From NCBI GenBank assembly GCA_016781925.1, contig JADDPH010000082.1, forward strand, positions 1 through 33,998: a stretch of DNA of 33,998 bases, written 5' to 3'. Under the pieces are notes generated by a model that did no database searches, had not been told where the DNA came from, and worked only from the letters and a program-made list of their open reading frames with translations. This document shows positions 32,847 to 33,392 of this stretch, one piece after another (the stretch's first letter is position 1; every line of letters begins with the position of its first letter). A program made the translations under genes and the position numbers. This stretch comes from Sphaerobacteraceae bacterium. Its GTDB lineage: Bacteria > Chloroflexota > Chloroflexia > Thermomicrobiales > UBA6265.

Positions 32847-33392
32847 GTGACAGCGGCACCCGTCACCGTCTACACCACCCACACCTGACCGTGGTGCGAT
32901 CGCGCTAAGGAGTTCCTTAGCTCCCACAACGTTCCATACGTGGAGAAGGATGTTGCAAACGACTACGCGGCGGCAATGGAGATGATTCGCCGCTCCGGAC
33001 AACAGGGTGTGCCGGTCATTGCGACCGACGACGAAGTGATCCTGGGGTTCGACCAGGTGCGCCTTGCTCGGCTCGCGGAGAAACTGTCAGGGCCGAAGCG
33101 CCCTCCGCTTGGGCTGCTCGGTGCGGACGCCGAACAGTATCTCCAACGTCATCCTGAGGCCGGAAGCGGGGCGCCCGTCAAGACCGGCGTCTTCGTGGGC
33201 GAGATTCGGCCTGGGACTGTTGCCGAGCGGGCTGGACTGCGGCGAGCCGACATCATTACCTCGTTGGCCGGCAAACGCGTCAAGACCATGGCGGACATGG
33301 ACCAGATGGTGGGCACGCTCAAGGCCGGCGACGCCGTCAGCGTGCGCTTCTGGCGTGCTGGTGAGGAGCAAACGGGGACGCTCCAGTTTTAG
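32847..33392 (+). CDS. putative selenocysteine-containing glutaredoxin-like protein fused to a PDZ domain (in-frame TGA at 32886-32888 read as Sec)
   Basis: GTG 32847 preceded by AGAGAGGT (6-nt spacing). Frame reads VTAAPVTVYTTHT[TGA]PWCDRAKEFLSSHNVPYVEKDVANDYAAAMEMIRRSGQQGVPVIATDDEVILGFDQVRLARL then PDZ GVFVGEIRPGTVAERAGLRRADIITSLAGKRVKTMADMDQMVGTLKAGDAVSVRFWRAGEEQ. TGA occupies the first Cys of the CPWC active site; the downstream frame is continuous with the listed ORF 32940..33392, whose GTG lacks a recognisable Shine-Dalgarno. Confidence 0.85.
32889..32927 (+). promoter_or_regulatory. putative bacterial SECIS element (stem-loop immediately 3' of the in-frame UGA)
   Basis: GCTAAGG (32904-32910) / AGTT loop (32911-32914) / CCTTAGC (32915-32921), perfect 7-bp stem; outer GTGG (32891-32894) / CCAC (32924-32927) may extend it. 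Apical loop begins 22 nt after the UGA and has G as its second nucleotide. Confidence 0.7.

What the first reader, a model, noticed from the sequence alone, without database searches (positions are those of the whole stretch)
32847..33392. Unannotated selenoprotein: glutaredoxin with UPWC active site created by an in-frame TGA
Seen directly: the listed ORF 32940..33392 is only the 3' part of a longer frame. A GTG start at 32847 with AGAGAGGT upstream opens VTAAPVTVYTTHT, then TGA (32886-32888), then PWCDRAKEFLSSHNVPYVEKDV...GVPVIATDD. This is a glutaredoxin-type thioredoxin fold with the TGA exactly at the N-terminal catalytic Cys of CPWC; the second Cys (TGC 32895-32897) is kept. Everything downstream stays in frame and looks intact, including the cis-Pro GVPV motif. 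Established knowledge: Sec replacing a catalytic Cys in UxxC redox motifs is the classic selenoprotein signature, and Sec-containing glutaredoxins are known in bacteria. Standard gene callers treat UGA as stop and would call a truncated or hypothetical protein without its active site.
Basis: partly seen in the sequence, partly recalled or inferred. Interest (0 to 1): 0.95.

Follow-up and report, generated by a model that had tools for sequence, protein, structure and literature searches.

The report
Selenium-containing glutaredoxin fused to PDZ domain
A bacterium of the phylum Chloroflexota almost certainly reads a 'stop' codon as the selenium amino acid selenocysteine in the active site of a small redox protein that also carries a protein-binding (PDZ) domain, and databases currently store that protein without its active site.

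Summary
In 105 distinct relatives from Chloroflexota genomes and metagenomes the column is TGA (55) or Cys (50), and no other residue was seen. A 7-bp hairpin with an AGUU loop begins 15 nt after the UGA; such a hairpin is in 54 of 55 TGA forms and 1 of 50 Cys forms. It covaries, is not forced by the protein sequence, and meets every published constraint of the bacterial SECIS model. The genome carries selA, selB and selD, and selD itself has an in-frame TGA. A tRNA-Sec gene was not found in this 82%-complete assembly, but the same-genus genome has one. Sec-glutaredoxins are a known kind; the PDZ fusion with Sec was not found in the 2026 catalogue of prokaryotic selenoproteins, and public databases hold the closest Sec forms as 138-154-aa fragments without the active site. 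New variant of a known kind. Sec insertion is inferred with high confidence; the biochemical role (client-tethered redoxin, probably not glutathione-dependent) is conjecture.

The parts
32847..33392 (+). Complete read-through coding sequence, 181 aa, glutaredoxin-PDZ fusion selenoprotein (GTG start, stop codon included)
32830..32841 (+). Purine-rich stretch upstream of GTG (agagagaggta), likely ribosome-binding site
   Evidence: read directly; inference
32862..33086 (+). Glutaredoxin-fold domain (about residues 6-80): UPWC motif, cis-Pro GVPV motif, LGFDQ near the end
   Evidence: Pfam PF00462 64.2 bits; AlphaFold model strands/helices 6-81
32886..32888 (+). TGA read as selenocysteine (residue 14), first position of the U-P-W-C motif
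   Evidence: 55 TGA / 50 Cys and nothing else in distinct relatives
32895..32897 (+). TGC, resolving Cys 17 of UPWC; invariant in alignment A1
32904..32921 (+). Bacterial SECIS hairpin GCUAAGG-AGUU-CCUUAGC: 7 bp, 4-nt loop, apical loop 22 nt after the UGA
   Evidence: constraints from PMC13188914
33180..33377 (+). HtrA/DegP-type PDZ domain (Pfam match residues 112-177; fold extends back to about residue 85)
33473..33517 (+). Long inverted repeat followed by a T-run (CACACCCGTTGTTG..CAACAACGGGTGTG..TTTTT), probable transcription terminator after the gene
   Evidence: read directly; not tested

Best explanation
The gene encodes a cytosolic selenoprotein: an N-terminal redoxin of glutaredoxin fold with active site Sec-Pro-Trp-Cys, fused to a C-terminal HtrA-type PDZ domain. 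The UGA at codon 14 is decoded as Sec by SelB and Sec-tRNA, guided by the in-frame hairpin just downstream (a bacterial SECIS element). Chemically, the Sec selenolate attacks a disulfide or oxidised thiol of a client and Cys17 resolves the intermediate. The PDZ domain probably binds the client's C-terminal or unfolded peptide, so the redoxin acts on selected proteins. The reductant is more likely a thioredoxin-reductase-type flavoprotein or another low-molecular-weight thiol than glutathione. Shown here by comparison: Cys/Sec column, SECIS hairpin, selA/selB/selD genes, domain architecture. Inferred: Sec insertion, redox chemistry, PDZ-tethered clients, reductant. The confidence given is for the selenoprotein reading; the client-tethering role is about 0.5.
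For: Column is only TGA or Cys in 105 distinct proteins. A hairpin of at least 6 bp at the right place with GU in its loop is in 54/55 TGA forms and 1/50 Cys forms; counted on distinct 51-nt stretches without the loop condition, 44/45 against 5/51, Fisher p about 2e-20, relatedness not corrected for. Three stem pairs change on both sides, 98.9% of cells paired, slid controls 38-62%. About 1% of synonymous recodings reach the observed stem in TGA forms, against a median 63% for Cys forms. Loop AGUU, 7 bp, 22 nt spacing, MFE -15.5 kcal/mol meet all four bSECIS constraints quoted in PMC13188914. Chloroheliales and one further family carry the same TGA with different stem sequences forming an analogous hairpin. 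selA 510 bits, selB 319 bits, selD 353 bits, all over cut-off; selD is itself interrupted by TGA in RSAG[TGA]ASKMGP. tRNA-Sec with anticodon TCA in the same-genus genome, 66 bits. Domains and fold. No glutathione synthetase over cut-off in 7 genomes of the family; thioredoxin-reductase-like flavoproteins in all 7, one over the cut-off.
Against: No tRNA-Sec gene found in this assembly by covariance model or by relatives' sequences, nor in two other TGA-bearing genomes estimated 93% and 98% complete. Taxon sampling is uneven: many metagenome TGA forms are close relatives, and only 3 Sec/Cys switches are forced by well-supported branches. The reductant and the clients have no direct evidence.
Confidence: 0.94

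Rival explanations
1. The TGA is a true stop; the real gene is the 150-aa ORF from 32940 encoding a PDZ protein with half a glutaredoxin domain (a decayed gene).
For: Standard gene callers and public databases hold exactly such fragments; no tRNA-Sec was found in this assembly.
Against: The codons before and just after the TGA are conserved across relatives that share 54-90% protein identity; the TGA recurs in many lineages and alternates only with Cys; the hairpin tracks the TGA. A decayed gene would show frameshifts and other residues.
Confidence: 0.02
2. UGA is read through by a near-cognate Trp-tRNA or another suppressor, inserting Trp or Cys rather than Sec.
For: Some bacteria reassign or leak UGA (general knowledge); tRNA-Sec not found in this assembly.
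Against: selA, selB and selD are present and selD carries its own TGA; the position is catalytic and otherwise always Cys; a hairpin fitting the SECIS model follows only in TGA forms.
Confidence: 0.02
3. The TGA is a sequencing or assembly error for TGC/TGT.
For: One base separates TGA from a Cys codon.
Against: The same TGA is present in dozens of independently assembled contigs and MAGs from different projects.
Confidence: 0.005
4. Same selenoprotein, different working role: the PDZ domain serves for dimerisation or localisation rather than client binding, and the redoxin is a general thiol reductant.
For: PDZ domains have several roles; no client or partner is visible in the neighbourhood (ffh upstream in 7 of 17 and MgtC downstream in 13 of 17 relatives' loci, some of them truncated).
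Against: None direct; HtrA-type PDZ domains typically bind C-terminal or unfolded peptides (established knowledge, not tested here).
Confidence: 0.35

Closest known systems
Sec-containing bacterial glutaredoxin (PF00462, UxxC; listed in PMC13188914, which cites Kim et al. 2011, Mol Microbiol 79:1194)
   Same: Glutaredoxin fold, Sec at the N-terminal position of UxxC, Cys homologues, bacterial in-frame SECIS
   Different: The reviews list a plain glutaredoxin with no fusion; here a PDZ domain is fused, the motif is UPWC (UPYC in some relatives), and the hosts are Chloroflexota without a recognisable glutathione synthetase in the genomes tested
Trx7/PDZ domain-containing (seleno)protein, NF041199
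   Same: Thioredoxin-fold selenoprotein joined to a PDZ domain
   Different: Different redox domain (Thioredoxin_7), motif CxxU, 390-position model; the window protein matches only its PDZ part (32.6 bits, cut-off 300)
Uxx-star family glutaredoxin-like (seleno)proteins, NF041212 / NF041114 / NF041211
   Same: Glutaredoxin-like selenoproteins
   Different: Below cut-off (60.5 vs 66; 37.5 vs 72; 31 vs 100 bits); UXX-star family 1 is listed as UxxT, without the second Cys kept here (PMC13188914)
YruB-family glutaredoxin-like protein, TIGR02196
   Same: Closest model to the redox domain (85.3 bits)
   Different: Slightly below its cut-off (88.55); a single-domain model of 74 positions, no PDZ
HtrA/DegP/DegQ PDZ domains
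   Same: PDZ part aligns to DegP PDZ1 by sequence and fold
   Different: No protease domain and no secretion signal apparent in the sequence

Membership tests
Bacterial selenoprotein | In-frame UGA aligned with conserved Cys of homologues, coding conserved on both sides | tested here: met
   55 TGA / 50 Cys, nothing else; conserved flanks
Bacterial selenoprotein | SECIS hairpin: 3-9 nt loop, 4-16 bp stem, G in first two loop positions, 16-37 nt spacing, MFE <= -7.5 | tested here: met
   AGUU loop, 7 bp, 22 nt, -15.5 kcal/mol (constraints from PMC13188914)
Bacterial selenoprotein | Genome encodes SelA, SelB, SelD | tested here: met
   each over curated cut-off
Bacterial selenoprotein | Genome encodes tRNA-Sec (selC) | tested here: inconclusive
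   Not found in the 82%-complete MAG; present in the same-genus genome G027 and, at 63 bits or more, in 14 of 32 family genomes
Bacterial selenoprotein | Sec shown in the protein (75Se, mass spectrometry) | not testable with these tools
   needs experiment
Sec-containing glutaredoxin (PF00462, UxxC) | Glutaredoxin domain over Pfam gathering score | tested here: met
   64.2 bits vs 22.9
Sec-containing glutaredoxin (PF00462, UxxC) | Sec at first position and Cys at fourth of the CxxC motif | tested here: met
   UPWC
Sec-containing glutaredoxin (PF00462, UxxC) | Uses glutathione as reductant | tested here: inconclusive
   No glutathione synthetase over cut-off in 7 family genomes, which argues against; no assay
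Uxx-star family (NF041212) | Score over curated cut-off | tested here: not met
   60.5 vs 66 bits
Trx7/PDZ (seleno)protein (NF041199) | Score over curated cut-off, with Thioredoxin_7 domain | tested here: not met
   32.6 vs 300 bits, PDZ part only

The most novel reading that the evidence does not exclude
A Sec-containing redoxin tethered to a peptide-binding PDZ domain defines a new selenoprotein family of Chloroflexota in which Sec and Cys have been exchanged repeatedly, with the SECIS hairpin gained or lost at each exchange; it would be a client-selecting oxidoreductase working without glutathione.
Probability: 0.45. Interest if true: 0.6.

Novelty: new variant of a known kind. Interest (0 to 1): 0.5.

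Why it matters
It adds a selenoprotein architecture that I did not find in the current catalogue, in a phylum not named in the passages of the two reviews that were searched, and it explains a set of database fragments that lack their active site. The tight alternation between UGA-with-hairpin and Cys-without-hairpin among close relatives gives a natural series for studying how bacterial SECIS elements arise and vanish, and the PDZ fusion makes client selection by a selenium redoxin testable.

Tried and rejected
Rfam scan of the window found no RNA family at gathering thresholds. Low-scoring tRNA-Sec candidates in the own genome were tRNA-Ser, -Leu, -Trp, -Gly, -Cys. The 15-20 kb around selA, selB and selD held no tRNA-Sec. 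DNA searches with the congener's tRNA-Sec and with that of another genus gave no real match. A mechanical look for other TGA read-through frames with a nearby Cys in the window gave, besides this one, only candidates that look like non-coding frames. The copy with an in-frame TAG on a plasmid of Candidatus Chlorohelix allophototropha is not a recoded site: it has Cys in the active site and the TAG lies between the two domains, splitting them into two genes. The neighbourhood was not informative about function. The first motif parser misplaced some Cys forms and was corrected.

Full report
What is there. The window frame 32847-33392 starts with GTG, has a TGA at 32886-32888 and otherwise stays open to its stop. 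The conventional ORF begins only at 32940 and encodes 150 aa. Read through, the 181-aa product is a glutaredoxin domain (Pfam PF00462, 64.2 bits) followed by a PDZ domain (38.6 bits). The alignment-based AlphaFold model has mean pLDDT 88 with strands and helices of both folds, and its PDZ part matches HtrA/DegP PDZ domains by sequence and by fold. The TGA falls on the N-terminal catalytic Cys of CPWC; the second Cys is invariant in the 19-member alignment.

Relatives. The window lies in a 2.23-Mb, 82%-complete genome assembly. Its closest named relatives are Thermomicrobiales MAGs, Chloroflexota. In the same bacterial family, 19 genomes (own included) carry the gene: 13 with TGA and 6 with TGC or TGT at this codon, and none with anything else. 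Adding other families of the class and a metagenome scan gave 105 distinct proteins, 55 TGA and 50 Cys; three further TGA forms and one Cys form were read in Chloroheliales and relatives. One caution: one of the two search patterns of the metagenome scan contained the Cys motif, so the Sec-to-Cys ratio is not a census. A parsimony count on the protein tree needs 13 changes between Sec and Cys, of which 3 are forced by well-supported branches. The direction of the changes was not resolved.

The SECIS element. In nearly all TGA forms of the family a 7-bp stem with loop AGUU begins exactly 15 nt after the UGA. A hairpin of at least 6 bp at this place with GU in the loop occurs in 54 of 55 TGA forms and in 1 of 50 Cys forms. 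Counted on distinct 51-nt stretches without the loop condition it is 44 of 45 against 5 of 51; the p-value there treats sequences as independent, which they are not. Three pairs of the stem change on both sides, with 98.9% of cells paired against 38-62% in slid controls. The most frequent exchange, GCU..AGC to GCG..CGC, also changes an encoded amino acid (Ser to Arg). Recoding the same amino acids at random with pooled codon usage reaches the observed stem in about 1% of trials for TGA forms and in 63% (median) for Cys forms. In the window the hairpin region folds at -15.5 kcal/mol, z = -2.4. The bacterial SECIS model quoted in PMC13188914 asks for a 3-9 nt loop, a 4-16 bp stem, a G in the first two loop positions, 16-37 nt spacing and MFE of -7.5 or lower; this hairpin meets all of them. 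G119 has one TGA copy and one Cys copy.

Decoding machinery. selA (510 bits), selB (319 bits) and selD (353 bits) are present and over their curated cut-offs. selD itself has an in-frame TGA in the sequence RSAG-TGA-ASKMGP, the position where selD is known to carry Sec or Cys (identification of the position from general knowledge). A tRNA-Sec gene was not found: weak covariance hits were other tRNAs, and neither the surroundings of the sel genes nor searches with relatives' tRNA-Sec gave a match. The same-genus genome G027 has one with anticodon TCA, and 14 of 32 family genomes have one at 63 bits or more. Two TGA-bearing genomes of 93% and 98% estimated completeness also gave none; these are fragmented MAGs, and the model search scored only part of its candidates, so this is a gap in the evidence, not a refutation.

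Function. Sec in first position of a UxxC motif in a thioredoxin-type fold normally makes a faster thiol-disulfide oxidoreductase (PMC13188914 says this for Sec-thioredoxins and Sec-glutaredoxins). The PDZ domain suggests that the redoxin is brought to particular proteins. None of seven family genomes has a glutathione synthetase over the family cut-off, while all have thioredoxin-reductase-like flavoproteins, one of them over its cut-off; this makes a glutathione-independent reductant more likely but does not show it. The neighbourhood gives no clear hint: ftsY and ffh lie upstream and an MgtC-family gene downstream.

Known or new. PMC13188914 (2026) and PMC9312934 (2022) list Sec-glutaredoxin (PF00462, UxxC) and a Trx7/PDZ selenoprotein, but no glutaredoxin-PDZ fusion was found in them by term search, and paper searches combining these terms found none. 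The library is open-access only, so absence there is weak evidence. NCBIfam models for related selenoproteins are below cut-off for this protein. Public protein sets hold Cys forms of full length, named glutaredoxin 3, YruB-family or PDZ domain-containing protein, and the closest relatives of the window protein as fragments of 138-154 aa without the active site, some named S1-C subfamily serine protease. I file it as a new variant of a known kind: a Sec-glutaredoxin with a new domain partner.

Noticed in passing
G000:C118:11471-12403 (L011): The genome's selD (selenophosphate synthetase) also has an in-frame TGA at its N-terminal Sec/Cys position, so it is probably a second selenoprotein of this genome.
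   Followed up: partly
L265 4986-5531 (NZ_CP128401.1 255365-255910), Candidatus Chlorohelix allophototropha plasmid: A Cys-type copy in which the glutaredoxin and PDZ domains are split into two adjacent genes by a TAG in the linker, amid rhodanese, TusA, DsrE and thioredoxin reductase genes: a possible hint to a sulfur-transfer or thiol redox function.
   Followed up: partly
G013 and G001 (L032, L025): Two fairly complete genomes with the TGA form in which no tRNA-Sec gene was found by model or DNA search; either missing from the MAGs or divergent.
   Followed up: partly
window 33537-33998: MgtC-family membrane protein gene directly downstream, with a homologue in 13 of 17 related loci; reason for the linkage unknown.
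   Followed up: partly
L247, L257, L240: A few Cys forms carry chance or relic hairpins of 7-8 bp near the SECIS position; L247 also keeps GU in its loop and pairs with the Sec form L190 in the tree, possibly a recent Sec-to-Cys change with a relic SECIS.
   Followed up: no
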